From Limnomonas spitsbergensis (taxonomy: Eukaryota; Chlorophyta; Chlorophyceae; Chlamydomonadales): a stretch of DNA of 64,000 nt. Under the pieces are notes generated by a model, which saw only the letters and a list, made by a program, of their open reading frames with translations, ran no database searches and was not told where the DNA came from. Below, piece after piece: positions 26,522 through 60,468 of the stretch. Numbering within the stretch: position 1 is the stretch's first letter; each line of letters starts with the position of its first letter. Location: contig JAYJMM010000114.1 of the NCBI GenBank assembly GCA_037349105.1, positions 1,798,001 to 1,862,000 on the forward strand, read 5' to 3'. A program made the position numbers and the translations under genes.

Positions 26522-26900
26522 TGCTGCTGGGTGCTGGAGGCGGAGGGGGGTGGGTGATGGGTTGGAATCAGAGGCAAGTACAGGAGGAGTTGGAGGGAGA
26601 AGATGCTCGAGAGAAATGCAGGATTATTTAAGAAGGAAAGGGTAGCGTTTTGGTGGACAAGGGGAAGTTACCAGTCCTGGAACGTGGGAGTGACGCGCCG
26701 TGGGAGAAGCAGAAGTTTTGGGAGAGGACAATTGGTTTGGAGGGTCCTAAAAGCCCCTCTCAGAAGAGAGAGGGGGACCCAGTCGCGAAAGGTTTGCGAG
26801 GAGGGTCGAAACAATTATCCCGTGGACGACCGAGGAGTGCAGCTCAGCTTTGGGCCCACGTTAGTGTCCTAGACACAGATAATGTTTGAAAGGAGTGGCG

Positions 26901-28439: not shown

Positions 28440-28551
28440 TCACAGCTTGCCCAGCATGAAGTCCATGACCTGCTCCAGCGTGCTGCGGGTGTCAGTCAAC
28501 AGCTGTTCCAGAGCCGGCAGCCGCTGCTTTGACGAGCTGATGCCGGTGAGC
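28440..28551 (-). CDS. BBS7: BBS7 exon 22 (stop codon)
   Basis: Encodes LTGISSSKQRLPALEQLLTD and ends EQVMDFMLGKL with TGA at 28440-28442. Acceptor 'catcag'. The C-terminal helix pattern fits BBS7. Confidence 0.9.
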
Positions 28552-31500
28552 CTGATGACGGGACAGGGTAAAAACGAAACAAACAATGGGTACCGTAGGG
28601 GGTGGACATTGCCGCAAGTCAGCAAATGTTAGTCCAGCCAGCCGCTGTTTTGATGAGGTGATGCCAGCGTTTTTTACAACAGTACCGTAAGAAGAAAGAG
28701 AAGGGTACAACGCAGCGTATACCGCTGCTTATCAATCTTGTGACAGCTACGCATGAAAAGCCGTAATACCAAGGCCGGGGAGGATTGGGCAGCCATTGAA
28801 CAGAAGAAAAATCAAAAGCAAAAAAGGGTTTATGGCAGACACAGAGTCGAGTCAGCTCATTTTGTGCCACTTGATATGGGTCCTGTCTGTCACTTGGGTT
28901 TATGGCAGACACTGCGGCGAGTCAGCTCATTTTGTGTCACCTGGCATGGGTCCTGTAAGGTCACCTAGAGAAAGCAGAGCCGTTGCTGGCAATACAAGCA
29001 GGACCCCTTAGTCCCCCTTCATCTACATACCCCATCGCCCCCCCCCCTGTTAAGGGTTCGGAGTTTGAGGTTACGTGCGCACTGAGAGGTGGTAGAACCT
29101 GACCAGGCTTCAACCCTAAACCCTGCACACCTTAACCCTGCACACCCTGAACCCTGCACACCCTGATCCTGTACACCCTGAACACCCTTAACCCTGCACG
29201 CCCTTAACCCTGCACACCCTGAACCCTGCACACCCTGAACCCTGTACACCCTGAACCCTGCACACCCTGAACCCTGCACACCCTGAACACCCTTAACCCT
29301 GAACCCTGCACAACCTGAACCATGCACACCCTGAACCCTGTACACCCTGAACCCTGCACAACCTGAACCCTGCACACCCCGAACCCTGCACACCCTGAAC
29401 CCTGCACACCCTTATCCATGTACAACCTGAACCCTGCACACCCTGAACCCTGCACACCCTGAACCCTGCACACCCTGAACCCTGCACACCCTGAACCCTG
29501 CACACCCTGAACCCTGCACACCCTGAACCCTGCACACCCTGAACCCTGCACACCCTGAACCCTGCACACCCTGAACCCTGCACACCCTGAACCCTGCACA
29601 CCCTGAACCCTGCACACCCTGAACCCTGCACACCCTGAACCCTGCACACCCTGAACCCTGCACACCCTGAACCCTGCACACCCTGAACCCTGCACACCCG
29701 TATCCATGTACAACCTGAACCCTGCACACCCTGAACCCTGCACACCCTGAACCCTGCACACCCTGAACCCTGCACACCCTGAACCCTGCACACCCTTATC
29801 CATGTACAACCTGAACCCTGCACAGCCTGAACCCTGCACACCCTGGACCCTGTACACCCTGAACCCTGCACACCCTGAACCCTGCACACCCCGAACCCTG
29901 CACACTCTGAACCCTGCACACCCTGAACCCTGCACACCCTTATCCTTGCACACCCCGAACCCTGCACACCCTGAACCCTGTACACCCTGAACCCTGCACA
30001 CCCTTATCCTTGCACACCCTTATCCTTGCACACCCTGAACCCTGCACACCCTGAACCCTGCACACCCTTATCCTTGCACACCCTGAACCCTGCACACCCT
30101 GAACCCTGCACACCCTGAACCCTGCACACCCTGAACCCTGCACACCCTGAACCATGCACACCCTTATCCTTGCACACCCTGAACCCTGCACACCCCGAAC
30201 CATGCACACCCTTATCCTTGCACACCCCCAACCCTGCACACCCTGAACCCTGTACACCCTGAACCCTGCACACCCTGAACCCTGTACACCCTGAACCCTG
30301 CACACCCTGAACCCTGCACACCCTGAACCCTGCACACCCTGAACTCTGCACACCCTCAACCCTGCACAACATGAACCCTGTACACCCTGAACCCTGTACA
30401 CCCTGAACCCTGCACACCCTGAACACTGCACACCCTGAACCCTGCACACCCTGAACTCTGCACACCCTCAACCCTGCACAACATGAACCCTGTACACTGT
30501 ACACCCTGAACCCTGTACACCCTGAACCCTGCACACCCTGAACCCTGCACACCCTGGACCCTGCACACCCTGAACCCTGCACACCCTGAACCCTGCACAC
30601 CCTGAACCTTGTACACCCTTATCCTTGCACACCCCGAACCCTGCACACCCTGAACCCTGCACACCCCGAACCATGCACACCCTTATCCTTGCACACCCCG
30701 AACCCTGCACACCCTTATCCTTGCACACCCTGAACCCTGCACACCCTGAACCCTGTACACCCTGAACCCTGCACACCCTGAACCCTGCACACCCTGAACC
30801 CTGCACACCCTGAACCCTGCACACCCCGAACCTGCACAACATGAACCATGTACACCCTGAACCCTGTACACCCTGAACCCTGCACACCCTGAACCCTGCA
30901 CAACCTGAACCCTGCACACCCTGAACTCTGCACACCCTCAACCCTGCACAACATGAACCCTGTACACTGTACACCCTGAACCCTGTACACCCTGAACCCT
31001 GCACACCCTGAACCCTGCACACCCTGGACCCTGCACACCCTGAACCCTGCACACCCTGAACCCTGCACACCCTGAACCTTGTACACCCTGAACCCTGTAC
31101 ACCCTGAACCCTGCACACCCTGAACCCTGCCTGCTCCACACTCAGGTGAGGTTGTACCTGGAAAATCCCAAGAACAGATCCACGATAAGCGCAGAGGTTT
31201 AACCCACTGCTTTACCCTGCTTGCGCCACACTGAGTGATGCACCAGAGGTCCAACCTCGTTAATCCTGCTTGCGCCACAATAGTGAGTGATTCAGCAGAG
31301 GAGGTCTCACCTGCAAAAGTCGAGGTACAGGTCCTTGATAAGCGCGGTGATGTGGTCCAGGTGCTGCGGCTGCTCCTTGTGCGCCGCCTTGATTTCCTCG
31401 GCCTGGTCCAGCAGGGCGCGGTACTCGGGGGCGAGGTAGCTCAGGTCACCGTCCTGCGCCTTGAGCTCCTTCGCAGGTTTTGGGGAGCGGGGGACGGGCA

Positions 31501-34500
31501 GGTGTGGTGGGGTAAGGTGGGATGGGGTGGGGTGGGATGGGGTATTCTGTTGTGTTGTGTGGGGACAGCAGGGTGCGGTACGTGGTGTGGGTGGTGGGTG
31601 GTGGGGTAGGCTGGGGGAGCGGGGGCGATGCAGGTGCGGTAAGGTGGGGTGGGATGGGGTGTGGTGTTGTATTGTGGCAGGACGACAAGGTTGGGGGGTG
31701 GGGCAGGTGGGGTCGGTTGGGTTCGGAGACATTGGGATGGGATGGGGTAAGCCAGGGTGGAGTCGAGGGCCGGGTCGGGTAGGGTAGCGGAGCAGTGGTA
31801 GAGATATCACACAAGTAGGTGAGTGGCAGATAGACAGGCGGTTTTGAACGCACTTGTACGTCAGGGTTGAGATCTTATGTTTGAAATGGCTTGTACCCTA
31901 TAGATCCCTGCCCCCTCTCACCGGGTCTCATCACTAGGCCCTCGCCCTGCACGTCTTGCAGGGTTGAGAATCGCAATGGTTTAAATGACCTTCATCTTAG
32001 ATTACTTCCCCATCTCCCTGGGTCTCACCACCAGGCCCTCCAGCAGCACGTACTGCAGGGCTGCGAATCATAAAAACGACCCCTTCATCCTACATCGCTG
32101 CCCTGCTCCTTGCGTCTCACCACCAGGCCCTCCAGCAGCACGTACTGCAGGATTTTTAATTATAAACCCCGCAGTAGGTCCAGGTGGAGGGCCTGGACCT
32201 ACTGCAGGGTTCATATATGACCCCTTACTCCTACACATCCCTGCCCTGCTCCTTGGGTCTCACCACCAGGCCCTCCAGCAGCAGGAAGTTCTTCTTCAGT
32301 GTGCGTTGCTTCTCCAGCTGAGGCCACACCAGCGTGATGCTGTGCTGCAAGCTGGCAGAGCTGCACAAAGTGGGGGGTGGGAGGGAGGGGGGCAGGAAGA
32401 GAATCCATTCACCGGCATGTCAGATGTTTGTTACCAATTATGCCAATGCTTTTACTAACAAGCGGGATGGCATCGGTTCCATAGGAGAGGGAAGGTGCCG
32501 CACGCTGGCGGAGCTGCGCTGAGGGACAGGGAGAACATCCGCTTATCTTGTTATCTTCCTGGATGCTTATGGACGCAAGCGCAATGCTGTACTGCAAGCT
32601 GGCAGGGCTGTACAGAGGGGGAGGAGGGCAGGAAGAACATCTGCCCCTGTCATTTTTTCATCATCTACTGATTCAATCAAGTGGGTCGGCATCGGGTACA
32701 GGAAGCTGACCGTGTAGTGCGCTGGCAGAGGAGTGCAAAGGGACAGGAGGAGAATCCCGCTCATGCTATACATTTATTATAAACCTAAAGACTCACCAGT
32801 TTGGTGCAGTGCTGCAAGCTGGCAGAGCTGCACAGAGGGACACGAAACATATGCGTGTTCATAAACCCTGAACCCACCTCGGGCTGAAGGAGACGTTGAC
32901 CCTGTGTTTTGCGTTGGTGGCCTCCCGCATGAGGTGCGCATGGATGATGCCCAGCGTGGTGATGAGGTCGCTGTGGAAGCGGGCCTCACCTGCACGATAC
33001 CTGGAGGGGAGGTGTTGTAGGTTCAATGAGGGGAGGTGTTGCAGGTTCAATGAGGGGAGGTGTTGCAGGTTCAATGAGGGGAGGTGTTGCAGGTTCAATG
33101 AGGGGAGGTGTTGCAGGTTCAATGAGGGGAGGTGTTGCAGGTTCAATGAGGGGAGGTGTTGCAGGTTCAATGAGGGGAGGTGTTGCAGGTTCAATGAGGG
33201 GAGGTGTTGCAGGTTCAATGAGGGGAGGTGTTGCAGGGTGCTGCAGGGTTCAAGGGGGAGGTGTTGCAGGTTCAAGGAGGGGAGGTGTTGCAGGTTCAAT
33301 GAGGGGAGGTGTTGCAGGTTCAATGAGGGGAGGTGTTGCAGGGTGCTGCAGGGTTCAAGGGGGAGGTGTTGCAGGTTCAAGGGGGAGGTGTTACAGGTTC
33401 AATGAGGGGAGGTGTTGCAGGTTCAATGAGGGGAGGTGTTGCAGGGTGCTGCAGGGTTCAAGGGGGAGGTGTTGCAGGTTCAAGGAGGGGAGGTGTTGCA
33501 GGGTATTGAAGGGTTCAAGGGGGTCAAAGGAGGGAGGTGTTGCAGGTTCAATGGTGTGTGTATGGAAATGGAGGAAGTGTTATGTGTGGATGAGAAGTGT
33601 TGCATGCCCGCATCATCCCTGGCTCACCAGCCCTTTTAAACCCCTCACCTTATATTCTTCTTAAACTAAACAAACAGGGAGGCCGGTCGCCCAACCCTAG
33701 AAAACCCGAGTCGCCAACACAAAGAACAGCTCGGGTGCGCATGTGGCCCTCGCCGTCTCTGACCTGCCTTTGAGCGAAACCCTAAACCCTTAACTCCAAC
33801 CAATACAATATCTCACCTGCAAGTGAGCTGCGTGGCCAGCAGCGTGTTCTGGTAGTACAGCAGCCCGTTGTCCTGATCCGCCAGCATCTGCGGGACATCG
33901 CTCAGCAGCATGCCGACCCAGCCGTGGATGTCCGACATGTCAAACGTGCCTGATGGGGGAGGCAGGGTTTTAGGGTGTAGGGCTTCTGAATATACCTAAA
34001 TCCTAAACTTAGCCGTGGATGTCCGACATGTCATACGTGCCTGATGGGAGACAGTTGAGGGTTCACGGAACAGGTCACAGGCTTCGAACCTGGTGCCTCA
34101 GCCCTAGACCCGTTTGTGATTTTCTGGCCTGTCTCCTGCAAGCCTGAAGTCACTGACACTAGTACACACACACACAAACACACACACACACACAAGCAAA
34201 CACAGCAGCACGCTAGCAAACTTACTTGCATACACTGACAAACCTTCGAATCCACCGAGACACCATATCGTTCATTCATCATTATTGATCTTGGCCACCT
34301 TCGCCGTGTACCCGCTGCCAAGTAGTAACGTGGGACTTCCCTTTGACCCTGACAAACAGTAACAGCTAATCCATCCTCTCACATGCCCCCCCCCCTTTCA
34401 CCCCCCCCCCCCCCCCCTCACACCTGCTACCTCCTTTTATCCACCCACCCTCAAACCTGACCCCCTTCCCACCTGTTATCACCAGCTCATTGGCTGGCCC

Positions 34501-40345: not shown

Positions 40346-40378
<33 letters not shown>

Positions 40379-52300: not shown

Positions 52301-55300
52301 GGAAGGCGAACTGCAGGATTCAGGGGAAGCCAAAATGCAGGATTCAGGGAAGCCAAACTGTAGGATTCAGGGGAAGCCGAACAAGTGCCTGCAAAGAGCT
52401 GGTGTGGGGCCAGGGTCCTCGTGGAGCAAGTAGGAGACAGCAGGGGGACGGCGGTTCAAGGTCAGGATGATAAGTGTGAAAGAGTGTGGACTGTGAAGGT
52501 GAAGCTGAGTGGCCAGAGTCGGTGTGGGAGCAGGGTGGCGGCGGGGAGACGGCGGTTTAGGGCCAGGGAAACAAGTGAGTGTGAACTGTGAAGGTGGAGC
52601 TGAGTGGCCAGAGTCGGTGTGGGAACAGGGTGGCGGCGGGGAGACGGCGGTTTAGGGCCAGGGAAACAAGGGTGAAAGAGTGTGAAATGTGAAGGTGGAG
52701 CTGAGTGGCCAGAGTCGGTGTGGGAGCAGGGTGGCGGCGGGGAGACGGCGGTTTAGGGCCAGGGTAACAAGTGTGAAACAGTGTGAACGTGGAGCTAGGG
52801 TCTGAGGCTAGGGTCCGTGCAGAAATAGGGAGACAACAGGGGGACGGCAGTTTGGGGCAGAGTGACAAGTGTGGCGGAGTGTGCAGGTGGAGATGACGGC
52901 CAGAGTCAGTGTGGAACCAGGAGGACAAAGGTGGACGGCGTTTTACCGGAAGGGTGAGAAGTGAAAAGGCGGAGCTGAACTCGCCAGCAGGTTTGCTAAC
53001 GCGGCCAAGGGGGCAAGTGTGACGAGTGTGAACTTGCCAGCAGTGTTGCCAACACGGCCAGGGGGCAAGTGACAAGTGTGAACTCACATGCAGCGTCAAT
53101 GGCGCGGCCAGGGAGGCAAGTGTGGCAAGTGTAAACTCACCTGCAGGGTCGCTGGCGCGGCCATGGGGGCAAGTGTGGCAAGTGTACAATCATGAGCAGG
53201 GTGGCTGGCGCAGAGAGAAAGGCAAGTGTGGCAAGTGTGAACTCACCTGCAGGGTCGCTGGTGCAGTGAGGGAGGCAAGTATGACAAGTGTGGACTCACG
53301 TGCAGGGTGGCTGGCGCCGCGAGGGTGGGTATATCGAGCAGGACGTCTGAGCCGTTGAGGATGCGGATGTGGCGGTCTTGGCAGGCGAGCGCAGGCAGGT
53401 AGTCATTGGGGCCCAGCAGGGGGAGCACCTGCACACAGCAAGGGGGAGGTGAAAGGGGCGAGGATGCGAGGGTGAGGAGTGGGTGAGTGGAAGGGAGGGA
53501 GATGAGCAAGAGGGAGAGGAATCAGGAGGGGGGCAGGGTTTGGGATTTGGAGCTGGTGAATACAGAGCCTGGTGCTTAGGAGTTTGTACGTCATATATTA
53601 CGTTGCACAACATGTCTATAAAAGATCACGCATTCATTTTTTGCTTTAAAAAACAGCAGCATTTTTTCATCATGCAGGATTGATGGTGCACCATTATTTG
53701 ATATCCCCTCAACGTCCCCTCCCCCTCCCTCTCCCCTGATGTAGGCTCTCAATTAAATGCTAACAAGCTTGTGCAAGCAGAAAAAATGTGTGCCACGATT
53801 TAAAACTCTCGCAGGGATCCTTATTTTAATTGTGGACGATAAGCTGCTGCACTTGAGGTCGCCGAGTGCACTCAAAGCTGCCCCTCTCACACATGTCACA
53901 ATTGACTCAGGGATCACGCTCAGGGTGAAGCACAAACCCTATCAAGGGAGGCGGGATCACGTGTGGAGGGCAAGAAACAGCAGCATGGCTTGTTAGCAGT
54001 AAGCATTGCACAAACGCGTTTCAGGCCATGCTGTGCCCCTTCCTCCCTGAAGGGAAATCACAGCCAGCTTCTACCCTGCTACCGAGGCCCGCAAACAGGC
54101 AGCGAGGACAGCAGGCCCAGCAGGCCCATGCACTGCCCCAACTGATGCGGCTGCTGCGGCGTTGTCATTGCCGCTTCACGCTGCTCAGTCACACCTTACC
54201 CTAAACCCTAAACCCTAAACTAGACATGGCGTGACGGCCATGCTGTCCCACCCCATTTGGGAGGAGCTGTGGGCCACCTGCTGCTCCATGGTAGCACAAT
54301 CGGGCTGAACCTGTGCCGTATCGAGCCGTATCGTGGAACTAAGGTAGTACAATCCGGCTGAACCTGTGCCGTATTGCGCCGTGTTGTGCTACCACTTGCT
54401 GCTCTGCCCCCCGGGGAGCCCCCAAACAGAGCGCATCCAGGCACAAGGTTGCTCTTAGGACTCCCATTGGCATTCGCATTCGGCAGTGCAGGCGAGGGCT
54501 GGACTGGGCGCACCTCTGCGTGGTTGATCCTGTCCGGGCACAGGTAGAAGGCCTTGTCCTTGCCCTCAATGTACTGGTTGTGCACATACTCGGCGGACGA
54601 CCAGATGTTCTTGTCAAACACGTCGACTTTGGTGATGCTCTCCGTCACCTGCAGGGGATGGGGCGGGGGGGCGGGGGCATGTGAGGTGTGAGGGAGCGGG
54701 GGGAGGGGGGGGAGGGCAATGGGGTGCATGGGTTTGGGGCGGGGGGATGTGAGGTGTGGGGGGAACAGTGGGGTAGGGGGGATGTGAGCTGTGGGGGAGT
54801 GGGCGGATGTGGATAAGGGGTGGGAAGATGGGCTGGTGTGGGACTTTGAAATTGTGGGGGGTGGGGGAGGGGAACATAGCAGGGACAGCAGGGGAGTGGG
54901 AGGACGGAGCTTAGGGGTGGGGAAATGGGCTGGCGTGGGGAAATGAATTTGTAAGTGTGTGGGGATGGGAGGGCGGGAGAAGTATGGGGCGGGTGGTGTG
55001 GTGTGGCGGGGAGGGTGGGGGAGCGGAAAGACAGAGGGCCAAGGGGCGGGAGGGTGGGCTGGGGGAAATTGGCTAAGGTGGGACAGAAAATTGGGTGTGG
55101 GTGGAGGACAAGTGTTTGTGGGCTTAGGGAAATTGGCTAGGGTGGGACAATGAATTTATGTGTGGGCGGGGGGATATGTGTGTGGGCTGGGGGACATTGG
55201 CTGGGTGGGACATAAATCTATGCGTGGGGGAAAGGAAGAATTGTGTGTGGGCTGGGGAAATTGGCTGGGGTGGGACAATGAAATTGTGTGGGGGGGGACA

Positions 55301-58300
55301 ATGATCCCGCCAAGCTTGTGAGCTTAGGTTTGCACGGGTAGGCGGGCGGTTAAATGGACAGGTGGGTGGGTGCCTGGGTGGGTGGGTGCTGCCAGTGGGC
55401 CATCATTGAAGAAGCCATGTCCAGGATCTAGGGCAGGGGTCCGCGTCAAATAAAATGAAAGAACAAGATCATATTGTAGATGTGCTTTGCCTTCCCTCGT
55501 AATTATGTTATTGAGAGGTGAGGAATGCATTCAAACGCTATTTATCGAACATTGGCGTCAGTTTTCAGTCGGTGGTTGGGACTTTTGTACCCCGAGGGCA
55601 GCACACTACAATAATATAATTAATTCATACACGAGGGAAAGCTATTCAAATCCACGGTAATATCAAAATAAATAAAACACATGAATGATGGGGTCCTGGC
55701 TGCAGAGTCCTGTGCGGCGTGCCTCCTGCCCAGGGGGGGTCAACCAGCGGTTCCTGGGCGGAGAATTATGTCAAGAGAATTTTGTCAAAGCGTGTAATTT
55801 GCAAAAATTTCCGCCCCAGAACCACTGGTTTCACCCCCCTCCCTGCTCCTGCCCACCTGGGGCGGGTTGTTTCTCTGAAAGCTTAGGGTGTGGGATAAGG
55901 GTTTAGGGTCCAGGTTTTATTAAGGTATTAAAGTCACAACCGCGGATATGTTTTTTTAAAGTTTCGAAACGACGGCGAAACTCACTTGCGTGTTGAACTT
56001 GAAAAACTCCTTTCCCTTCCTGCTGATGCCCATGATCTGCATGTCAAGGGGGCAAGCAGGGGAGGTAGGGTGGGGTACTGGGATGATGCCCATGATCTGC
56101 AAGGTGAGGGGACAAGCAGGGGAGGGGGTCGCAAGTAGGGTGGGGTGCTGAGGTGGGGGGAGGGCAGTCAGGTCCAGAGCAATGGTGTGGGGTGAGTGGA
56201 GAACGGAGTGGGGTGGGGTGGGGGTGGGGTACTGGGGAGAGTGGAGATTGGGGTGAGTGGAGATGAGGGCATCCAGGTGGAGTTGGGTACTGGGGTGGGG
56301 GGAGGGCAGTCCAGTCCAGAGCAATGGTGTGGGGTGAGTGGAGATGAGGGCGATTCAGGTGGGGTGGGGTACTGGGGTGAGGAGAGGGCGGTCAGGTCCA
56401 GAGCAATGGTTGGAGTGAGTGGAGATGGGAGCAGTTACGGTGGGGTGGGGTACTGGGGTGAGGGGAGGGCAGCCCGGTCCAGAGCAGGTGGGTTGGGTGG
56501 AGATGGGGGCAGTTACGGTGGGGTGGGGTACTGGGGTGAGGGGAGGGCAGCCCGGTCCAGAGCAGGTGGGGTGGGTGGAGATGAAGGCAGTTCAGGTGGG
56601 GTGGGATATTGCAGTAAGGGGAGGGCAGTCAGGTCCAGAGCAATGCGGTTCGGTGGGGTATGTGGAGACTGGGGTGGGGTGGGGTGAGTGGAGACTGGGG
56701 TGGGGTGGGGTGAGTGGAGACTGGGGTGGGGTGGGGTGAGTGGAGACTGGGGTGGGGTGGGGTGAGTGGAGACTGGGGTGGGGTGGGGTGAGTGGAGACT
56801 GGGGTGGGGTGGGGTGAGTGGAGACTGGGGTGGGGTGGGGTGAGTGGAGATTGGGGTGGGGTGGGGTGAGTGGAGACTGGGGTGGGGTGGGGTGAGTGGA
56901 GACTGGGGTGGGGTGGGGTGAGTGGAGACTGGGGTGGGGTGGGGTGAGTGGAGACTGGGGTGGGGTGGGGTGAGTGGAGACTGGGGTGGGGTGGGGTGTG
57001 TGGAGACTGGGGTAGGGTGGGTGAGTGGAGACTGGGGTGGGGTGGGGTGAGTGGAGACTGGGGTGGGGTGGGGTGAGTGGAGACTGGGGTGGGGTGGGGT
57101 GTGTGGGGACTGGGGTGGGGTGGGGTGAGTGGAGACTGGGGTGGGGTGGGTTGAGTGGAGGCTGGGGTGGAGGGGGTGAGTGGAGACTGGGGTGGAGTAG
57201 GGTGAGTGGAGACTGGGGTAGGGTGGGGTGAGTGGAGACTAGGGTGGGGTGGGGTGAGTGGAGTGGAGACTGGGGTGTGTGGAGATGGGGGCAGCTCAGT
57301 TTACTTGCTTGTGTACAGCACAGATGGGTTCAGGCAGGGTGGGCTGGGTAGAGGTGAGGGCAGTCCGGTTCCGTTGAGGTGGGGAGGGTTAAGATGGCAG
57401 TCAGGTCAGTTGATTTCAGTTGAGTTCAGGTGAGGTGAGGGCAGTTAAGGACCCAAGGTGGGCATGGTGTGATGAGTATAGGTGGGTGGGGTGAGGTGAA
57501 GTGGGGTGGGGTAAGGTGAGGTGGGTTGGGGTAAGGTGAGGTGGGTTGGGGTGAGAAAAGGCCAGGTCGAGTTCAACCAGGCGATCCTGCCGGGCTGGTG
57601 ACAGGAGCTCATCGTACACCCCTCTCTCGAGGCCTCTCACAGGGCATCTTTCATCCATTCCACACATGTGCATCTTATCAGGCTATAGATTGCAGCCACG
57701 GGCTATATATGCAGCCAGGCTCTTCTTAGCAGCTTCCCTCCCCATTAAGTGCAACATCTCTACCTATCACCCGCTCCCCCCCAGGGTTTGGGGTTTAGGG
57801 TTTAGGGTTAAGGTCTAAACCCTAAACCATTGACTGCAACATCTCCACCTGTCACCCCCCTCCCCCCTTCAGCGGCCCCAGGAAGTGACATTGCCCACCG
57901 CCCCCCCACCAGCAAACGCACACCAGTGCCAGGCTGACATTCAGCCAGACCCTTACATGCTTCCCCTTCCCCCATTCATTTTGGAATGTGTGTGGACGAT
58001 AACAAAGATGCTGTCAGCTGGCCTGCAGATACGCCTAGCTCCCAGCCAAGCCAGTCAGTTCCACCACCCTCCCATTCCTTGCAAAATAACCACCGCCAGA
58101 TGCACAGGATCGGCGGACGCACCTGGCTCCCCACAAAGATGCCACCAGCTGCCCCGCAGACACACCTAGCATCTACCTCCCAGCCAAGCCAGTCAATTTC
58201 ACACTTCCACCACCCTCGCATGTCGTTGCAAAATAATCACCGCCAGGTGCGCACAGGATCAGCAGACGCACCTGGCTCCACTTAGACACAAAGATGCCAC

Positions 58301-60468
58301 CAGCTGCCCCGCAAGCACACCTAGCATCGAGCTCCCAGCCAAGCCAGTCAATTTCACCACCCTCTCATGTCTTTGCCAATAATCCTCGCCAGATGCACAG
58401 GATCAGCAGACACACCTGGCTCCCAGCCAAGCCAGTCAGTTCCACCACCCTGCCATGTCCTTGCAAAATAATCGCCGCCGGCTTCACAGGATCAGCGGAC
58501 GCACCTGGCTCCACATAGTCACAAAGATGCCACCAGCTGCTCCGCAGGCACAACTAGGGGCCAGCTCCCGGAGAAACAAGTCAATTTCTCTGGGAGCTGG
58601 CCGCTAGGTGTTCCACCACCCTCCCATGTCTTTGCAAAATATCCACCCCCAGATGCACAGGATCAGCGGACGCACCTGGCTCCCAGCAGCCACAAAGATG
58701 CGGTCCCTCTGGGCCTTGCCCTTGCCCAGGGAAAGGCTGGTGATCTGGTACAGGCAGGCAGGCAGGCAGGCAGGGAGGTAGGCAGGGAGGAAGGCAGGCA
58801 GGCAACAGGCAGGTAGGTAGGCAGGGAGAAAGGCAGGCAGGGCATTTCCACGTTGCTTGCGTGGGGGAAGGTCACATTGGGGCCTTTTTAATGCCCCAAG
58901 GACTAAAAGATGGGGGCATTTCCACCTTGTGTGCAGACGAACGTCACATTTGGGCCCTTTAATGCCCCAAGGACTGTGCCGTGTGCAAAATCTGTGAGTA
59001 GGAGCATTCCCTGGTCTTTGGGTGGCACATAGGCGGGTCAACTGGTATCGACAGAGTTGGTGACAGGTGTCGACAGGTGGTGACAGGTGTCGACAGGTGG
59101 CGACAGGTGGAACACCGTGTCCAGCAGGAACGACATTTTGCGTGTCAGAGCCGCATTTTGAATGTGGATCCACATCTAGATCCGCATGTAGCGAGCTGGC
59201 GCAGCCTTCAAGGGGGCAGACGGCATACGACCGCATGCCCAAAGCAGCAGACGCAGGGCAGAATAGGCAGGGTCAGTGTTCATTTTTTCTTGACTCGGCT
59301 ACACGTCAGCTACAACCCGGCCACTGGCCAGAGGCAGGTCCAGGTTTGCTCCCGATTGGGCCTCAAGCGGCTGCAGGGCGGCCTGCCGAAAGTAGGCTCG
59401 TAGCCGAAAAAGGAAATGTGATCAGGGCAGCGCGCGTTAATGCACAGCGGCATGCACGCCTAATCGTGCATCGAGCTGAGGGCCTGCCTCTTACCTTTTG
59501 GCTGGTTGGCAAGGTCTTGAAGGCTAGTCCTATTTCGCCTTTCTTTACTCCAAAGCATTGCATGACGCCTGAAGCATGTTTCGTGGGCGGTGCGTCAGTC
59601 AGGCGCAGTGTTGTGAGCAGCCTTCATTTTAGCACACATCGGATTATGTTGGGCAGGCCGTGGGGAAGCCACCCGTGGGTTGATGGGAACGTCACCTTGA
59701 CCAGCATAAAACGAGCGGCCCAAGCGACAGGGTTTGCTGCACCAGGTGCCAACAGTAATAGGCTGTGATGCAGCTGAATTGTAGCTAAAGCAACCTAAAC
59801 AGTGGTTATGGGCTCCCGATAGCAGCGAGTGTCAACAACCAAAACAGGAAAGCCTGTTTCTTCAGCTATTTGTGTACAAGCACCAGACGGATTCCAGTCG
59901 ACGTGAGACCATCAGTCCCCCCTAAAATGACAGGAGTGGTAATTATGGCCATAAAGCCAGGTTCGATGCTCGCACCAGCTACATGAACCCTCGATTGGGA
60001 CCCAGAAAACATATTATGGTCGATGAGGTGGGGGAGCCCAGTTTGAATGCTGCATGCAGGGCCGCTCAGGAAAGTGGGGCACGATGGCTAGCATCTGGAT
60101 GGAGAGCCAGGGGCCATACCGGCCAGTCCGTGCGCATGCATGCATCCATGCCTTGACCCAAGGAGATGATGCGCATGCGCAGTGCCTGGCTTCCTATAGG
60201 TGTCTATAAGGAGCCTTGGAGCATGCACATGCGTTTAGGCGTCAGCTCCTGTTCAAGTTTGAACCCACCAGACAGGTCCCCCGCCGCAACTTTTTGCGTC
60301 CTCCTCTCCTCGCCGACAGGCAGCACCTGGCAGGACGCACAGACGCGTGGAAGCGAGATTTATGACTCGGATGTCTGAAAAAGAAAGGGTCGCTGCGCGT
60401 ACCGCCATTGTCCCTCTGCTGCAGCTCGAGGTCTGGATAAGATCATGGCGCAATAGCTCCAGCTCCAT
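28440..60468 (-). CDS. BBS7: BBS7, Bardet-Biedl syndrome 7 homologue (gene level, 22 exons)
   Basis: BBS7 is a subunit of the BBSome coat that moves membrane proteins in and out of cilia, where it pairs with BBS2 and BBS9. The 22 exons join with consistent phases into 2196 nt including the stop (731 aa; animal BBS7 is about 670-715). Residues about 1-343 form the beta-propeller (FGVKKGE, YLPALACQDRHIRILNGSDV, DIVVARDDGLLEIYD). Residues 344-378 form a coiled coil (EEEERKAGYQAQVVRLKKEM). A GAE-like and platform region follows (NLTLATYR, TIQAFIIPNISPKTC). The C-terminal helices include YLAPEYRALLDQAEEIKAAH. The start Met gives MELELLRHDLIQ, matching the conserved N-terminus. The gene spans 32 kb; introns make up about 93 percent and are filled with minisatellites seeded from exon edges. 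The gene is divergent from misato with 295 bp between starts. Confidence 0.95.
28630..28690 (-). repeat. Intron 21: partial copy of exon 22 start
   Basis: On the sense strand a diverged copy of the exon 22 start translates as GITSSKQRLAGL against GISSSKQRLPAL. It lies about 120 bp upstream of the real exon. Confidence 0.85.
28830..28965. repeat. Intron 21: 66-bp direct repeat, two copies
   Basis: Two copies share 'gtttatggcagacac' and 'gagtcagctcattttgtg' and end 'atgggtcctgt'. Confidence 0.9.
29110..31130. repeat. Intron 21: 15-bp minisatellite, about 130 copies
   Basis: The unit is 'accctgcacaccctga' type at 15-bp period with variants ('ttatcc', 'tgtaca', 'cacaac'). Because 15 is a multiple of three, both strands stay open and give long spurious frames. 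The sense strand reads 'ggttcagggtgtgca', which resembles variant telomere repeats. Confidence 0.97.
31143..31192 (-). repeat. Intron 21: copy of exon 21 end with donor
   Basis: The sense strand reads 'gcgcttatcgtggatctgtt' and then 'gattttccag|gtacaa', a diverged copy of the last 38 bases of exon 21 plus its donor. Confidence 0.85.
31311..31468 (-). CDS. BBS7: BBS7 exon 21
   Basis: Encodes ELKAQDGDLSYLAPEYRALL and QHLDHITALIKDLYLDFC. The acceptor 'tgcgaag' has a poor pyrimidine tract but gives the right phase. Donor 'ttgcag|gtgaga'. Confidence 0.92.
31490..31800. repeat. Intron 20: GT-rich repeats, about 130 bp
   Basis: Blocks of 'gatggggtggggtgggatgg' type recur at about 31520, 31650 and 31735. 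Boundaries are poorly defined. Confidence 0.6.
31905..32263 (-). repeat. Intron 20: three copies of exon 20 end with donor, about 90-120 bp units
   Basis: The real junction at 32264 reads (plus strand) 'gggtctcaccaccaggccct'. Copies with 'gtctcaccaccaggccctcc' lie at about 32024 and 32114, and a diverged one at 31924. Each carries exon-derived bases, the donor and following intron. Confidence 0.9.
32264..32351 (-). CDS. BBS7: BBS7 exon 20
   Basis: Encodes LQHSITLVWPQLEKQRTLKK and NFLLLEGLV. Acceptor 'ctgccag', donor 'ctggtg|gtgaga'. Acceptor side and donor side are both duplicated in the flanking introns. Confidence 0.92.
32352..32877 (-). repeat. Intron 19: about four copies of exon 20 acceptor and start
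   Basis: The motif 'gctgcaagctggcagagctgc' in shortened forms recurs at about 32500, 32590, 32715 and 32812. On the sense strand each is acceptor 'ctgccag' followed by the first exon 20 bases. Confidence 0.88.
32878..33000 (-). CDS. BBS7: BBS7 exon 19
   Basis: Encodes YRAGEARFHSDLITTLGIIH and EATNAKHRVNVSFSP. Acceptor 'ccctccag', donor 'cccgag|gtgggt'. Confidence 0.94.
33001..33560. repeat. Intron 18: 24-25-bp minisatellite, about 22 copies
   Basis: The unit 'ggaggtgttgcaggttcaat' plus 'gagg' abuts exon 19. Higher-order variants 'gggtgctgcagggttcaagg' are interspersed. The unit includes the pyrimidine tract of the exon 19 acceptor, but copies of the exon itself are not clear. Confidence 0.95.
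33817..33949 (-). CDS. BBS7: BBS7 exon 18
   Basis: Encodes TFDMSDIHGWVGMLLSDVPQ and LLYYQNTLLATQLTC. Acceptor 'ccatcag', donor 'ttgcag|gtgaga'. Confidence 0.94.
34010..34048 (-). repeat. Intron 17: copy of exon 18 acceptor and start
   Basis: 'ggatgtccgacatgtcatac' followed by 'gtgcctgatggg' repeats 33928-33958 almost exactly, 91 bp upstream on the sense strand. Confidence 0.95.
34380..35038 (-). repeat. Intron 17: array seeded by exon 17 end and donor
   Basis: Two long copies of the exon 17 end ('accagctcattggctggccc') lie at 34482 and 34908. Between and around them are about 15 shorter units of about 30 bp containing 'cacacctgtcacccc', the donor in reverse. The real junction is at 35039. 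Confidence 0.92.
35039..35114 (-). CDS. BBS7: BBS7 exon 17
   Basis: Encodes IKPLCLHTRIDAVDTTRPTN then ELVVT. Acceptor 'gtatcag', donor 'tgacag|gtgaga', phase 0 to 1. Confidence 0.93.
35460..35886 (-). repeat. Intron 16: about eight copies of exon 16 end with donor, 50-60 bp units
   Basis: The plus strand repeats 'attactcttatcaccttgtg' followed by 'tgacacagtgacaca'. The real junction at 35887 carries the same bases. Copies become more diverged with distance from the exon. Confidence 0.93.
35887..36010 (-). CDS. BBS7: BBS7 exon 16
   Basis: Encodes CQDSTSRLAVKFKV and TIQAFIIPNISPKTC. Acceptor 'ccctccag', donor 'cacaag|gtgata'. The spacing to exon 17 equals that in animal BBS7. Confidence 0.93.
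36011..36440 (-). repeat. Intron 15: four copies of exon 16 acceptor and start, about 100-120 bp
   Basis: 'gtygagtcctgacacctgga' variants occur at about 36109, 36199, 36302 and 36401. On the sense strand each is the acceptor region 'ccaggtgtcag' with the first bases of exon 16. Confidence 0.93.
36440..37100. repeat. Intron 15: about four degenerate 170-190-bp units
   Basis: Each unit contains 'caacagyaggrgcaayctag' and a later 'gggygcctggcgg' stretch. No relation to an exon was seen. Confidence 0.75.
37480..38202 (-). repeat. Intron 15: degenerate copies of exon 15 end with GC donor
   Basis: 'gtccgcttgcctgcagg' and 'gcccgcytgcctraaggtcg' variants recur at about 37510, 37612, 37708, 37812, 37896, 38018 and 38090. 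They match the real junction at 38190-38215. The sense strand reads 'ctgcaggcaagcggac', keeping the GC donor. Confidence 0.88.
38203..38318 (-). CDS. BBS7: BBS7 exon 15, probable GC donor
   Basis: Encodes VAVQSNMALQLLDV and GNLTLATY. Acceptor 'cgcgcag'. The donor that keeps the conserved TYRCQ reading is 'tatag|gcaagc', a GC donor. A GT donor 12 bases further with a different acceptor for exon 16 would also stay in frame. Confidence 0.85.
38695..39900 (-). repeat. Intron 14: 47-bp minisatellite, about 25 copies, with exon 14 end, donor and telomere-like motif
   Basis: On the sense strand each unit has 'gccaatctttgcggtacgtg' (exon end plus donor) followed by 'cttagggtttagga'. Copies are highly uniform, with two variants ('aagattggcattg' and 'aatatgggcatgg'). 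Confidence 0.97.
39901..40033 (-). CDS. BBS7: BBS7 exon 14
   Basis: Starts with one base completing Lys, then FDKGMGSNALLAASAPFTVK. Acceptor 'ctccag', donor 'tttgcg|gtacgt'. The exon end is repeated about 25 times in intron 14. Confidence 0.9.
40090..40335 (-). repeat. Intron 13: two to three copies of exon 14 start and acceptor
   Basis: 'gccgaggcggccagcagtgc' at 40089, 'gtcaaacctggagtgtggtg' at 40195 and 'acccttgtcaagcctggggg' at 40292 repeat parts of 39988-40048. A foreign dispersed segment (40117-40186) is inserted between them. Confidence 0.85.
40117..40186 (+). repeat. Dispersed repeat also found at 11909-11975
   Basis: Both copies read 'catagaaa..aaagct', then 'gcgtgaga', then 'ttaaggaaacagc.cagcct'. 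Both keep the same frame (GVRxKETAQPG). Element unknown. Confidence 0.85.
40880..41221 (-). repeat. Intron 13: 65-bp minisatellite, five to six copies, with exon 13 end and donor
   Basis: Each unit carries 'cctacttttgcttctccagg' plus 'gtgagct' (plus strand), which is the end of exon 13 and its donor, and then 'cacactgcccaccccctaac'. Confidence 0.96.
41222..41325 (-). CDS. BBS7: BBS7 exon 13 (coiled coil)
   Basis: Encodes EEEERKAGYQAQVVRLKKEM and GELTLEKQ, a charged helix at the position of the animal coiled coil. Acceptor 'cctacag'. The donor 'caaaa|gtaggc' is fixed by an in-frame TAG immediately after it and by phase with exon 14. Confidence 0.88.
41326..41760 (-). repeat. Intron 12: about three copies of exon 13 start with acceptor, 120-140 bp
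   Basis: 'cgcctt.cgctcctcttcctcg' type sequence recurs at about 41445, 41575 and 41725, each followed by 'ctcac..gcaggacaagtg'. This repeats 41296-41340. Confidence 0.9.
42034..42105 (-). CDS. BBS7: BBS7 exon 12
   Basis: 24 codons with VLTYSPPGGG and EQLDKKGNRMA. Acceptor 'cgctcag', donor 'atggcg|gtgagt'. It ends the propeller. Confidence 0.88.
42370..43324 (-). repeat. Intron 11: 60-61-bp minisatellite, 13 copies plus degenerate ones, with exon 11 end and donor
   Basis: Each unit from 42535 on contains 'caccttgcccgtgaaggtct' then 'gcagcacaac', which is the exon 11 end and donor on the plus strand. Three units have 61 bp, the one next to the exon among them. Degenerate copies reach down to about 42370. 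Confidence 0.97.
43325..43426 (-). CDS. BBS7: BBS7 exon 11
   Basis: 34 codons with KLSESINAVDGGFITTINTQ, ending TFTGK. Acceptor 'cattcag', donor 'ggcaag|gtgggg'. The exon end is repeated 13 times in intron 11. Confidence 0.94.
44225..44835. repeat. Intron 10: 127-bp minisatellite, about five copies
   Basis: Each unit contains 'cacctcgcttgctaaaagtg' and 'ctactcaaaacacagtcttc'. It abuts exon 10 within 50 bp, but I see no exon-derived bases in it. Confidence 0.95.
44876..44976 (-). CDS. BBS7: BBS7 exon 10
   Basis: 33 codons, with CNDIVVARDDGLLEIYDIDE, a conserved propeller blade. Acceptor 'aaatctcag', donor 'caacag|gttcgg'. The acceptor is the exon-proximal member of an array of about 54 near-identical copies. 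Confidence 0.94.
44977..47300 (-). repeat. Intron 9: 42-43-bp minisatellite, about 54 copies, with exon 10 acceptor and start
   Basis: On the sense strand each unit has 'ataaatcccag' followed by 'gcattgatttca', which matches the real acceptor 'ataaatctcag' and exon start. Length alternates between 42 and 43 by one A. Each unit carries GAATTC and ATGCAT palindromes. Uniformity is very high. Confidence 0.98.
47340..47725. repeat. Intron 9: about 180-bp units, two to three copies
   Basis: 'gcaatgcctcggggaggga' occurs at 47483 and 47643, and 'gtactcgattgtgtgacg' at 47530 and 47692. A weaker copy starts at about 47360. Confidence 0.9.
47726..48627. other. Intron 9, remaining part
   Basis: A (TG)n tract at 47772-47790, a 'ggttagg/gggtttaggg' region at 47900-47970, and 'agggtttagggtttaggg' at 48529. 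No exon found. Confidence 0.4.
48628..48726 (-). CDS. BBS7: BBS7 exon 9
   Basis: Starts in phase 1 and encodes GLLVQLLCDQDATRQGF and later LGAITAIYT. Acceptor 'catgcag', donor 'acacgg|gtgcgc'. Confidence 0.88.
48845..48905 (-). repeat. Intron 8: copy of exon 9 acceptor and start
   Basis: 'tcacacagcagttacaccag' followed by 'cagacatgcatagcaa' matches 48700-48738 ('tcacacagcagttgtaccag', 'caggcctgcatggcaa'). It lies about 155 bp upstream on the sense strand. 'ttcagttgga' flanks both. Confidence 0.92.
48960..49110. repeat. Intron 8: 'cactcaccccaccacttagg' 20-bp repeats
   Basis: About seven imperfect copies. Confidence 0.85.
49130..51135. repeat. Intron 8: 34-bp minisatellite, about 59 copies
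   Basis: The unit on the plus strand is 'ctcacctgcttccttcccac' followed by 'tactgcctccatcc'. On the sense strand each unit contains 'aagcag|gtgagg', a good splice-donor consensus. 34 is not a multiple of three and the unit has no stop in any frame of the plus strand, which explains a long spurious frame. Confidence 0.97.
51443..51515 (-). CDS. BBS7: BBS7 exon 8
   Basis: 24 codons plus one base, with AKELLYSTDT. Donor 'acacgg|gtgagg'. The acceptor is either 'gtctcag' (51516) or six bases later; both stay in frame. Confidence 0.88.
51540..51700. repeat. Intron 7: about 60-bp units near exon 8, three copies
   Basis: 'ggttagggctagggtgagaa' type sequence followed by 'gagaaggagagc' recurs at 51557, 51609 and 51660. 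A relation to the exon 8 acceptor is possible but not clear. Confidence 0.75.
52285..52385. repeat. Intron 7: 22-24-bp repeat, four copies
   Basis: The unit is 'aggattcaggggaagccaaa' with small changes. Confidence 0.92.
52470..52800. repeat. Intron 7: about 92-bp units, four copies
   Basis: Each contains 'gagctgagtggccagagtcg' and 'gggagacggcggtttagggc'. Confidence 0.93.
52970..53299 (-). repeat. Intron 7: five to six copies of exon 7 end with donor, about 50-60 bp
   Basis: 'gtgaactcacctgcagggtc' and variants occur at 53248, 53133, 53078 and more diverged at 53027 and 52978. They match the real junction ('actcacgtgcagggtggctg'). The sense strand reads 'gcgaccctgcag|gtgagt', a stronger donor than the real one. 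Confidence 0.93.
53300..53428 (-). CDS. BBS7: BBS7 exon 7
   Basis: 43 codons containing PALACQDRHIRILNGSDV, the strongest match to animal BBS7. Acceptor 'gtgtgcag', donor 'ctgcac|gtgagt'. Confidence 0.95.
54196..54218. repeat. Intron 6: interstitial telomere-like tract
   Basis: Three 'ccctaaa' units without interruption. Confidence 0.9.
54295..54412. repeat. Intron 6: about 55-bp direct repeat, two copies
   Basis: 'gctgaacctgtgccgtat' occurs at 54304 and 54357 with 'acaatc.ggctgaacc' before each. Confidence 0.9.
54514..54648 (-). CDS. BBS7: BBS7 exon 6
   Basis: 45 codons beginning VTESITKVDVFDKNIW and ending DRINHAE. Acceptor 'cctgcag', donor 'gcagag|gtgcgc'. Confidence 0.93.
54660..55320. 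repeat. Intron 5: G-rich repeats, about 70-bp units
   Basis: 'gggaaattggctagggtggg' and 'acaatgaatttgtgtg' variants recur at least five times between 54920 and 55300. The plus strand is strongly G-rich. Confidence 0.8.
55986..56036 (-). CDS. BBS7: BBS7 exon 5
   Basis: 17 codons, IMGISRKGKEFFKFNTQ. Acceptor 'catgcag', donor 'acgcaa|gtgagt'. Matches the conserved I-x-G-x-x-K-x-GK segment. Confidence 0.92.
56076..56110 (-). repeat. Intron 4: copy of exon 5 acceptor and start
   Basis: 'gatgatgcccatgatctgca' at 56081 repeats 'gctgatgcccatgatctgca' at 56022-56041, followed in both by a 'ggcaagcagggg' stretch. Confidence 0.95.
56130..56660. repeat. Intron 4: about 100-bp units, five copies
   Basis: Each contains 'tggggtactggggtgagggg' and 'gtccagagca'. 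Confidence 0.93.
56661..57290. repeat. Intron 4: 26-bp G-rich minisatellite, about 22 copies
   Basis: The unit is 'gtggagactggggtggggtg' plus 'gggtga'. The plus (antisense) strand has regular runs of four G and could form G-quadruplexes. Confidence 0.96.
57785..57835. repeat. Intron 4: inverted telomere-like tracts
   Basis: 'ggtttagggtttaggg' is followed 9 bases later by 'ctaaaccctaaacc', so the two can pair as a hairpin. Confidence 0.85.
57990..58675 (-). repeat. Intron 4: about five copies of exon 4 end with donor, 110-150 bp
   Basis: 'aggatcagcggacgcacctg' followed by 'gctcccag' recurs at about 58108, 58255, 58397 and 58488 and matches the real junction at 58660-58690. Each copy also has 'ccaagccagtcaatttcacc'. 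Confidence 0.94.
58676..58744 (-). CDS. BBS7: BBS7 exon 4
   Basis: 23 codons with IFVAAGSQ at the end. The acceptor 'tgtaccag' follows a (CCTG)n tract. The donor is 'agccag|gtgcgt'. The intron behind it repeats this exon end. Confidence 0.9.
58751..58830. repeat. Intron 3: (GGCA)n microsatellite in the exon 4 acceptor tract
   Basis: 'aggcaggcaggcagg' and 'gggaggaaggca' form the pyrimidine-rich tract on the sense strand directly before exon 4. Confidence 0.93.
58840..58985. repeat. Intron 3: 64-bp direct repeat, two copies
   Basis: 'ggcatttccac.ttg' to 'aatgccccaaggact' occurs twice (58838-58900 and 58915-58977). Confidence 0.93.
59495..59568 (-). CDS. BBS7: BBS7 exon 3
   Basis: Acceptor 'gcttcag', donor 'caaaag|gtaaga'. 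It encodes GVMQCFGVKKGEIGLAFKTL, nearly identical in pattern to animal BBS7. Confidence 0.93.
59496..60268. other. BBS7 introns 2 and flank; dispersed 'agctgaa.tgtagc' repeat
   Basis: Apart from exon 3, this stretch holds no coding. At 59725-59800 'gggtttgctgcaccagg' and 'gatgcagctgaattgtagct' match sequences at 37455-37505 and 37575-37605, so a dispersed element is present. Confidence 0.5.
60269..60326 (-). CDS. BBS7: BBS7 exon 2
   Basis: Acceptor 'ctgccag', donor 'tctg|gtgggt', phase 0 to 1. It encodes VLPVGEERRTQKVAAGDLS, aligning with the conserved TQKV-x-x-GD strand. Intron 1 is only 76 bp. Confidence 0.88.
60403..60468 (-). CDS. BBS7: BBS7 exon 1 (start codon)
   Basis: 22 codons from ATG at 60468-60466, beginning MELELLRHDLIQTSS. 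The donor is 'atggcg|gtacgc', phase 0. The conserved animal start has the same spacing to exon 2. Confidence 0.88.

What the first reader, a model, noticed from the sequence alone, without database searches (positions are those of the whole stretch)
28440..60468. Minisatellites seeded from exon-intron junctions fill most BBS7 introns
In at least fifteen junctions of this 22-exon gene the neighbouring intron holds repeated copies of the junction itself. On the donor side the unit is exon tail + donor + first intron bases (introns 4, 7, 11, 13, 14, 15, 16, 17, 20, 21). On the acceptor side it is intron end + acceptor + exon head (introns 4, 8, 9, 12, 13, 15, 17, 19, 21). Unit lengths, sequences and copy numbers differ in each intron, so these are independent events at splice junctions and not one repeat family. 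I know of no described class that does this systematically along a gene. It could reflect a mutational process acting at splice sites, for example repair at R-loops.
Basis: partly seen in the sequence, partly recalled or inferred. Interest (0 to 1): 0.95.

Follow-up and report, generated by a model that had tools for sequence, protein, structure and literature searches.

The report
Intron tandem repeats overlapping splice junctions
In this gene of a green alga, most introns hold tandem repeats, and the repeated units often include the edge of the neighbouring exon, so many introns carry copies of their own splice site; this looks more like a by-product of repeats growing in once-short introns than a process aimed at splice sites.

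Summary
BBS7 is a 22-exon minus-strand gene (28443-60468). Of 17 exon-intron pairs that match by BLASTN, 16 are an exon and its own neighbouring intron, all direct; 18 of 42 junctions have copies (1-53 each) inside the intron.

"Seeded from junctions" is not shown. A 20-mer has a local copy with frequency 0.43 at the junction, 0.33-0.53 over the next 300 bp, 0.57 in the interior; in 62 neighbouring introns 0.13 and 0.22. Of 105 repeat families in five gene sets 33 span a junction; uniform founder placement predicts 30.8 if introns were 230 bp when founded, but 11.0 at their present non-array length. BBS7 alone (14) exceeds growth simulations from 230 bp (7.6 +/- 2.7) and 340 bp (4.9), not from 120 bp (11.5). 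The exon part of copies is short (median 26 nt), which uniform placement does not predict.

Best explanation: rampant intronic tandem duplication in a chlamydomonadalean alga, probably the snow alga Limnomonas spitsbergensis, reaching tolerated exon edges. One human parallel, IFI6, is known. A bias towards junctions remains possible.

The parts
28440..60468 (-). BBS7 gene, 22 coding exons, ATG at 60468, stop codon 28440-28442
   Evidence: spliced profile alignment; family identity
42461..43348 (-). intron 11 donor-side array, 60 bp x 14.7; unit = last ~35 nt of exon 11 + donor + intron start; runs into exon 11 (43325-43426)
38695..39930 (-). intron 14 donor-side array, 47 bp x 26; 25 copies of the exon 14 donor junction
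40878..41249 (-). intron 13 donor-side array, 66 bp x 5.7; copies of the exon 13 donor junction (6 in the intron)
44965..47330 (-). intron 9 acceptor-side array, 43 bp x 55; 53 copies of the exon 10 acceptor junction (12-14 nt of exon)
52976..53325 (-). intron 7 donor-side array, 53 bp x 6.7; 4 copies of the exon 7 donor junction
35487..35907 (-). intron 16 donor-side array, 51 bp x 8; 8 copies of the exon 16 donor junction
35992..36337 (-). intron 15 acceptor-side array, 103 bp x 3.4; 3 copies of the exon 16 acceptor junction
37769..38225 (-). intron 15 donor-side array reaching 23 nt into exon 15 (38203-38318); 4 junction copies in the intron
58039..58675 (-). intron 4 donor-side copies of the exon 4 donor junction at +171, +260, +404, +553
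56037..56097 (-). intron 4 acceptor-side copy of the exon 5 acceptor junction at -60 (13 nt of exon, the weakest)
31932..32263 (-). intron 20 donor-side copies of the exon 20 donor junction at +143, +235, +332
34473..35038 (-). intron 17 donor-side copies of the exon 17 donor junction at +139, +566
33950..34041 (-). intron 17 acceptor-side copy of the exon 18 acceptor junction at -91
35115..35204 (-). intron 16 acceptor-side copy of the exon 17 acceptor junction at -89
32361..32828 (-). intron 19 acceptor-side copies of the exon 20 acceptor junction at -153, -247, -467
41326..41600 (-). intron 12 acceptor-side copies of the exon 13 acceptor junction at -146, -274
40034..40306 (-). intron 13 acceptor-side copy of the exon 14 acceptor junction at -272
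48727..48883 (-). intron 8 acceptor-side copy of the exon 9 acceptor junction at -156
28552..28665 (-). intron 21 acceptor side: BLASTN match to exon 22 bases 8-58 (76%, E 7e-6)
49134..51142 (-). intron 8 array, 34 bp x 59, not junction-spanning in the family test; gapped self-alignments start up to 27 nt inside exon 8, so a decayed junction origin is not excluded
29113..31130 (-). intron 21 array, 16 bp x 126, telomere-like unit, not junction-spanning (counter-example)
56652..57263 (-). intron 4 array, 26 bp x 24, not junction-spanning (counter-example)
44203..44830 (-). intron 10 array, 127 bp x 5, not junction-spanning (counter-example)
33004..33522 (-). intron 18 array that abuts the exon 19 acceptor (33000) without reaching the 8-nt exon overlap used for 'junction'

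Best explanation
Introns of this alga grow by repeated direct tandem duplication of segments of about 16-190 bp (slippage or unequal exchange; the enzymatic step is inferred, not shown). Positions are roughly uniform along intron plus exon edge. Duplications inside exons are removed by selection (inferred), but one that starts in the last or first tens of exon bases and ends in the intron leaves a complete exon and a working outer splice site, so it is tolerated. When an intron is short (about 100-250 bp), such junction-spanning placements are a large share of all tolerated placements, so many later arrays carry the junction. Splicing must then use the 5'-most donor and the 3'-most acceptor copy (inferred from the intact reading frame).
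For: No peak at the junction over both sides together: fraction of 20-mers with a local copy 0.43 at 0, 0.33-0.53 over the first 300 bp, interior 0.57 pooled (0.48 as mean of introns), 0.02 at 30 nt inside the exon (21 introns); 0.13 at the junction and 0.22 inside in 62 ab initio introns; 0.20 and 0.47 in 15 introns on C100. The inward rise in the two unselected sets is the shape that uniform placement gives in simulation. Families with >=3 copies: 33 junction of 105; uniform expectation 30.8 at 230 bp; outside BBS7 19 of 72 (26%), beside 24% in the uniform growth simulation from 230 bp made with BBS7 lengths. Large internal arrays exist in the same introns. In the same genome the array-poor ABCG gene has a median intron of 251 bp over the 20 introns kept; six relatives, not the closest ones, have medians of 198-343 bp (PMC8226300, passages). 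Repeats are direct; the 8 inverted matches, in 5 introns, are self-palindromes. Period modulo 3 in TRF rows is 19, 13, 19 (overlapping rows counted), so copies do not look kept as in-frame exon.
Against: BBS7 has 14 junction families; sequential growth gives 7.6 +/- 2.7 from 230 bp, 4.9 +/- 2.3 from 340 bp and 2.6 +/- 1.4 from 600 bp; only a 120-bp start (11.5 +/- 2.4) reaches it (8 runs each). At present non-array lengths 11.0 would be expected against 33, and four of five sets are above expectation at p<0.05; a constant 230 bp for every event is itself an upper bound. By the plain count BBS7 has 21 of 57 against 5.5. The flat BBS7 profile resembles the simulation with half or all events aimed at junctions more than the uniform ones, and 14 of 42 exon-edge hits lie above the uniform 230-bp range (4.7-12.7) though within that for 100 bp. 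On the acceptor side alone 9 of 21 junctions have a copy against 6 and 5 of 21 at 10 and 20 nt inward. Copies stop about 30 nt into the exon (0.02 at -30, simulation without a cap 0.15). Two more BBS7 arrays start 2-4 nt from a junction but miss the 8-nt exon rule. Array-poor C120 genes have a median ab initio intron of 416 bp, 18 of 34 at most 419 bp. Outside BBS7, PrimPol and ABCG the exon models are ab initio.
Confidence: 0.62

Rival explanations
1. A mutational process favours splice junctions (for example breaks or re-replication where the spliceosome, a paused polymerase or an R-loop sits) and seeds tandem duplications there.
For: 21 of 57 BBS7 families junction-spanning against 5.5 expected at present non-array lengths; 33 of 105 against 11.0 over five sets; 14 in BBS7 against 7.6 +/- 2.7 in growth from 230 bp, which a targeted share below 0.25 would match, or from 600 bp a share between 0.25 and 0.5; flat profile like the targeted simulation; exon part of copies narrow, median 26 nt, 22 of 24 at most 45 nt, whatever the spacing; array cover 0.517 in BBS7 introns and 0.031 outside predicted gene spans; 5 of 6 donor-side arrays G-rich on the coding strand.
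Against: No peak at the junction over both sides in BBS7, in 62 neighbouring introns or on C100, and the last two rise inward; outside BBS7 the junction share, 19 of 72, is that of uniform placement from 230 bp; many large arrays are internal; over all 16 arrays examined 9 are G-rich and 7 C-rich on the coding strand.
Confidence: 0.25
2. Junction copies are kept by selection, as spare splice sites, alternative exon ends or splicing regulators, as the human IFI6 minisatellite supplies alternative donors.
For: GT or AG in copies is as well kept as the rest (0.94 against 0.87 in 9 donor families, 0.87 against 0.81 in 9 acceptor families); one human precedent (passage in PMC4526556).
Against: Spacings show no preference for multiples of three, so use of an inner copy would usually break the frame; the copy search conditions on similarity, which inflates GT/AG identity; most BBS7 families are internal, 36 of 57.
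Confidence: 0.05
3. The introns themselves arose by tandem duplication of coding segments with AGGT (Rogers model), and the exon copies are footprints of intron birth.
For: The model predicts exon sequence inside introns and single cases are described (PMC4974935, passages).
Against: It predicts downstream-exon head right after GT and upstream-exon tail right before AG (my derivation from the model); here donor-side copies are exon tail plus donor plus intron start and acceptor-side copies intron end plus exon head.
Confidence: 0.03
4. Assembly or polishing artefact.
For: Long arrays in a PacBio CLR assembly can have wrong copy numbers (general knowledge).
Against: Copies differ from each other and from the exon, units differ per intron, single dispersed copies occur, and similar patterns occur in PrimPol, ab initio neighbours and C100 while C120 has none.
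Confidence: 0.02

Closest known systems
Human IFI6 (6-16, G1P3) minisatellite providing multiple splice donor sites (Turri 1995; seen only as a citation and a sentence in PMC4526556)
   Same: A minisatellite whose units carry splice donors at an exon end.
   Different: One junction of one gene, with inner units used as donors; here 9 donor and 9 acceptor junctions of one gene, other genes too, with no sign of in-frame use.
Intron gain or change by tandem genomic duplication (Rogers model; potato RdRp, PMC4974935, passages)
   Same: Tandem duplication across exon and intron sequence; in potato an intron-exon structure was duplicated.
   Different: There a new intron or exon results; here exon number fits the protein of relatives and the copies lie inside the intron.
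Ordinary intronic minisatellites (general knowledge)
   Same: Direct tandem units of about 16-190 bp, strand-skewed, inside introns.
   Different: Such arrays usually lie within the intron; here 33 of 105 families overlap the exon edge.

Membership tests
Intronic minisatellite / tandem repeat | head-to-tail direct copies of a unit longer than 10 bp | tested here: met
Intronic minisatellite / tandem repeat | copy-number variation between individuals or strains | not testable with these tools
   one assembly only
IFI6-type splice-site minisatellite | repeat unit contains the donor and includes the exon edge | tested here: met
   9 donor junctions of BBS7
IFI6-type splice-site minisatellite | inner copies used as splice donors | not testable with these tools
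   needs transcripts; spacing modulo 3 shows no preference
Rogers intron gain by tandem duplication | downstream exon head after GT and upstream exon tail before AG | tested here: not met
   opposite arrangement at the 18 junctions with copies
Introner or transposon-derived intron sequence | same repeat family in many introns | tested here: not met
   for the exon-derived repeats: 1 of 17 matching pairs is non-adjacent; units differ per intron; internal arrays were not compared between introns
   both sides together; acceptor side of BBS7 alone has a weak local maximum, 9 against 5-6 of 21
   33 of 105 against 30.8 at 230 bp or 11.0 at present non-array length; BBS7 14 against 11.5, 7.6, 4.9, 2.6 from 120, 230, 340, 600 bp

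The most novel reading that the evidence does not exclude
A splicing- or transcription-linked process in this algal lineage preferentially duplicates short segments centred on splice junctions (about 15-45 nt of exon plus some intron), making introns grow from their ends; with up to 53 near-identical decoy acceptors or 25 donors per intron, exons are found only because the outermost site is chosen, which would make these genes natural assays of exon definition.
Probability: 0.23. Interest if true: 0.8.

Novelty: new variant of a known kind. Interest (0 to 1): 0.5.

Why it matters
It shows a route by which introns can gain many intact decoy copies of their own splice sites. Such genes let one ask directly how a spliceosome picks one of dozens of nearly identical donors or acceptors (IsoSeq data exist for the likely source species), and they mislead gene finders: my ab initio model read the intron 11 array as exons. 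For the mutation question, the short-intron geometry gives a null that any claim of junction-targeted duplication must beat.

Tried and rejected
Reading the flat profile alone as proof of uniform placement: rejected, because one search showed that uniform placement with large arrays makes the profile rise into the intron; hence the family counts. One search compares copies with the conserved exon, which lets junction families be seen at greater age; one search asks for two intronic copies beside the original (three copies for internal families). Templated insertion in both orientations: the 8 inverted matches are self-palindromes. Array choice (16 arrays) was mine, from the TRF list. Decay of decoy splice sites: none seen, but the search conditions on similarity. 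Literature: ten searches; in the listings no paper on arrays overlapping splice junctions through a gene; most subscription papers are not held. PMC6823432 (passages) was not relevant.

Rows dropped before counts: one search kept 123 of 179 ab initio introns (19 of BBS7, the rest for short exons or introns or exons inside arrays); searches also dropped weak splice scores and lengths outside 100-4000 bp (62 and 50 introns on C114, 15 on C100; the 50 leave out BBS7, ABCG and PrimPol stretches). Of 37 ABCG introns 20 were kept, chosen by me from the alignment. Intron 1 (76 bp) is left out of the interior figures and the simulations. C120 gave 0 of 0 families and adds nothing to the 105. Ab initio genes are unverified, except that of 5 predicted proteins, partly truncated by me, 4 match a Pfam family above its cut-off and one (MFS_1) below it.

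Genome-wide tests with the genome search could not be made: it answered once and was unreachable. No relative's genome was available (one search says the genome has no relatives here), so orthologous introns were not compared.

Full report
WHAT WAS CHECKED. The window lies in a 260,226,709-base genome of 124 contigs. Size, contig number and G+C (53.8% in the window) fit the published assembly of the Arctic snow alga Limnomonas spitsbergensis, 260,248,090 bp, 124 contigs, 54.15% G+C, PacBio CLR plus Illumina (PMC11228838: abstract, passages and two sections seen); the identification is an inference from these numbers. A spliced alignment of a profile of 13 green-algal BBS7 proteins gives 22 exons on the minus strand from 60468 to 28443 with a stop codon after it; 20 of 21 introns are GT-AG and one GC-AG, the only types the aligner allowed.

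THE OBSERVATION. Of 462 exon-intron pairs 17 match at E<=0.05 and 16 of these are adjacent; all 17 are direct, and 15 of the 16 reach within 3 nt of the exon edge. Exon-edge 20-mers have their strictly best match in the own intron at 20 of 42 junctions, about 2 expected; for mid-exon 20-mers an adjacent intron is strictly best in 2 of 20 exons. Copies in junction register are shown for 18 of 42 junctions, from one copy to 53 (intron 9 acceptor), 25 (intron 14 donor) and 15 (intron 11 donor).

NOT ONLY BBS7. Two hundred kilobases around the window were fetched and genes predicted with a small gene finder trained on BBS7. Outside BBS7, 26 of 246 junctions of 123 ab initio introns have their strictly best copy in the own intron, about 2 expected. 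Two genes were modelled by homology: PrimPol, with junction families in 4 of 9 introns, and an ABCG transporter, with short introns and 3 of 16 families at junctions. A 40-kb stretch of contig C100 is array-rich (cover 0.333) and shows junction families too; one of C120 is array-poor (0.009) and shows no family in 12 introns. Array cover is 0.517 in BBS7 introns, 0.229 in PrimPol, 0.128 in ABCG, 0.238 in predicted gene spans outside exons (BBS7 included) and 0.031 outside predicted genes; the last two depend on gene models that arrays can mislead.

IS THE JUNCTION SPECIAL? If duplication were seeded at junctions, the chance that a 20-mer has a local copy should peak there. In BBS7 it is 0.33 at 10 nt inside the exon, 0.43 at the junction, 0.33-0.53 over the next 300 bp and 0.57 in the interior (0.48 as mean of introns); it falls to 0.02 at 30 nt inside the exon. 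On the acceptor side alone there is a weak maximum: 9 of 21 at the junction, 6 and 5 of 21 at 10 and 20 nt inward. In 62 neighbouring introns the figures are 0.13 at the junction and 0.22 inside; on C100 0.20 and 0.47. So exon edges are copied about as often as intron sequence, not more.

A flat profile alone is not decisive: simulated uniform placement with large arrays gives a profile that rises inward, as seen in the neighbours and on C100, while aimed placement gives a flatter one, as seen in BBS7. Families were therefore counted. In the plain count 21 of 57 BBS7 families span a junction, against 5.5 if founders were uniform over the present non-array intron; ABCG 3 of 16 against 3.1; PrimPol 5 of 17 against 1.7. 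This count favours junction families because the exon copy stays conserved. With at least two intronic copies besides the original (three for internal families) the numbers are BBS7 14 of 33, PrimPol 3 of 8, ABCG 1 of 7, ab initio C114 9 of 39, C100 6 of 18: together 33 of 105. Uniform placement predicts 30.8 if introns were 230 bp long when the families were founded, 52.4 at 120 bp, and 11.0 at the present non-array lengths, where four of the five sets exceed expectation at p<0.05 (sums mine). A fixed 230 bp is an upper bound for later events. A sequential growth simulation for BBS7 lengths gives 11.5 +/- 2.4 junction families from 120 bp, 7.6 +/- 2.7 from 230 bp, 4.9 +/- 2.3 from 340 bp, 2.6 +/- 1.4 from 600 bp, and 16.6 +/- 2.3 from 230 bp when a quarter of events are aimed at junctions; observed 14 (8 runs each). 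Outside BBS7 the share is 19 of 72, 26%, beside 24% for the uniform simulation from 230 bp. BBS7 was picked because it is striking, so some excess there is expected.

HOW LONG WERE THE INTRONS? The 20 ABCG introns kept have a median of 251 bp; array-poor C120 genes a median of 416 bp, with 18 of 34 at most 419 bp (ab initio); six relatives of another clade have median intron lengths of 198-343 bp (PMC8226300, passages). The likely source species has a mean of 788 bp (PMC11228838, passages). An ancestral length of 230 bp is plausible but not shown, and the verdict hangs on it.

WHAT DOES NOT FIT. The exon part of junction copies is short: 13-64 nt, median 26, 22 of 24 at most 45 nt, beside exons of 38-197 nt and spacings up to 379 nt. 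Uniform placement without a limit would reach deeper (0.15 of junctions at -30 nt in simulation, 0.02 seen). Either longer exon pieces are selected against, perhaps because they attract splicing, or duplication end points cluster near exon edges. This is the best remaining support for a junction-linked process. Two further arrays start 2-4 nt from a junction (introns 7 and 18), and gapped self-alignments of the intron 8 array start up to 27 nt inside exon 8.

HOW IT WORKS, SHOWN AND INFERRED. Shown: direct orientation (the 8 inverted matches, in 5 introns, are self-palindromes), tandem spacing, periods without preference for multiples of three (19, 13, 19), GT or AG kept in most copies, and a reading frame that needs the outermost site. 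Inferred: slippage or unequal exchange as the cause, selection against exon-internal duplications, and exon definition as the way the right site is found. Coding-strand skew is G-rich in 9 and C-rich in 7 of 16 arrays; donor-side arrays are G-rich in 5 of 6, acceptor-side C-rich in 2 of 2, so R-loops find no general support but are not excluded at donors.

KNOWN RELATIVES. One human minisatellite, in IFI6, supplies several splice donors (sentence and citation in PMC4526556). Tandem duplication across exons and introns is known as a source of new introns (PMC4974935, passages), but the arrangement differs. The paper on the likely source genome lists 22.78% unclassified repeats; the sections and passages seen do not mention intronic tandem arrays. 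In the listings of ten library searches no description of arrays overlapping splice junctions through a gene was found.

VERDICT. Its reading as junction seeding is not needed if introns were short when the repeats were founded: tandem duplication then makes junction-spanning units common. A bias towards junctions is not excluded.

Noticed in passing
window 16640-26623, minus strand: One uninterrupted reading frame of 3328 codons with reverse transcriptase and RNase H domains and a weak endonuclease match (below cut-off): a LINE-type retrotransposon beside BBS7.
   Followed up: partly
window 29113-31130 (intron 21): 126 copies of ACCCTGAACCCTGCAC, which resembles plant-type telomere repeats (resemblance recalled); not junction-spanning.
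   Followed up: no
window 32031-32215 (intron 20): Self-complementary stretches (74 nt at 81%, 55 nt at 80%, 169 nt at 63%) beside the junction copies could fold as long hairpins.
   Followed up: no
window 38203 (intron 15 donor): The only GC-AG intron of BBS7; 3 of its 4 donor copies also carry GC.
   Followed up: no
L003-L022, L023-L026, L027-L030: Tandem-array cover differs widely between regions: 0.185 over 264 kb of C114, 0.333 on C100, 0.009 on C120; cause unknown.
   Followed up: partly
L010, about C114:1862900-1870900, plus strand: Misato-like gene (Pfam Misat_Tub_SegII) with junction copies at three predicted introns; the first predicted exons, opposite BBS7, may be spurious.
   Followed up: partly
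L011, C114:1874083-1875848, minus strand: A predicted 3-exon gene that looks like a light-harvesting chlorophyll-binding protein (by eye only).
   Followed up: no
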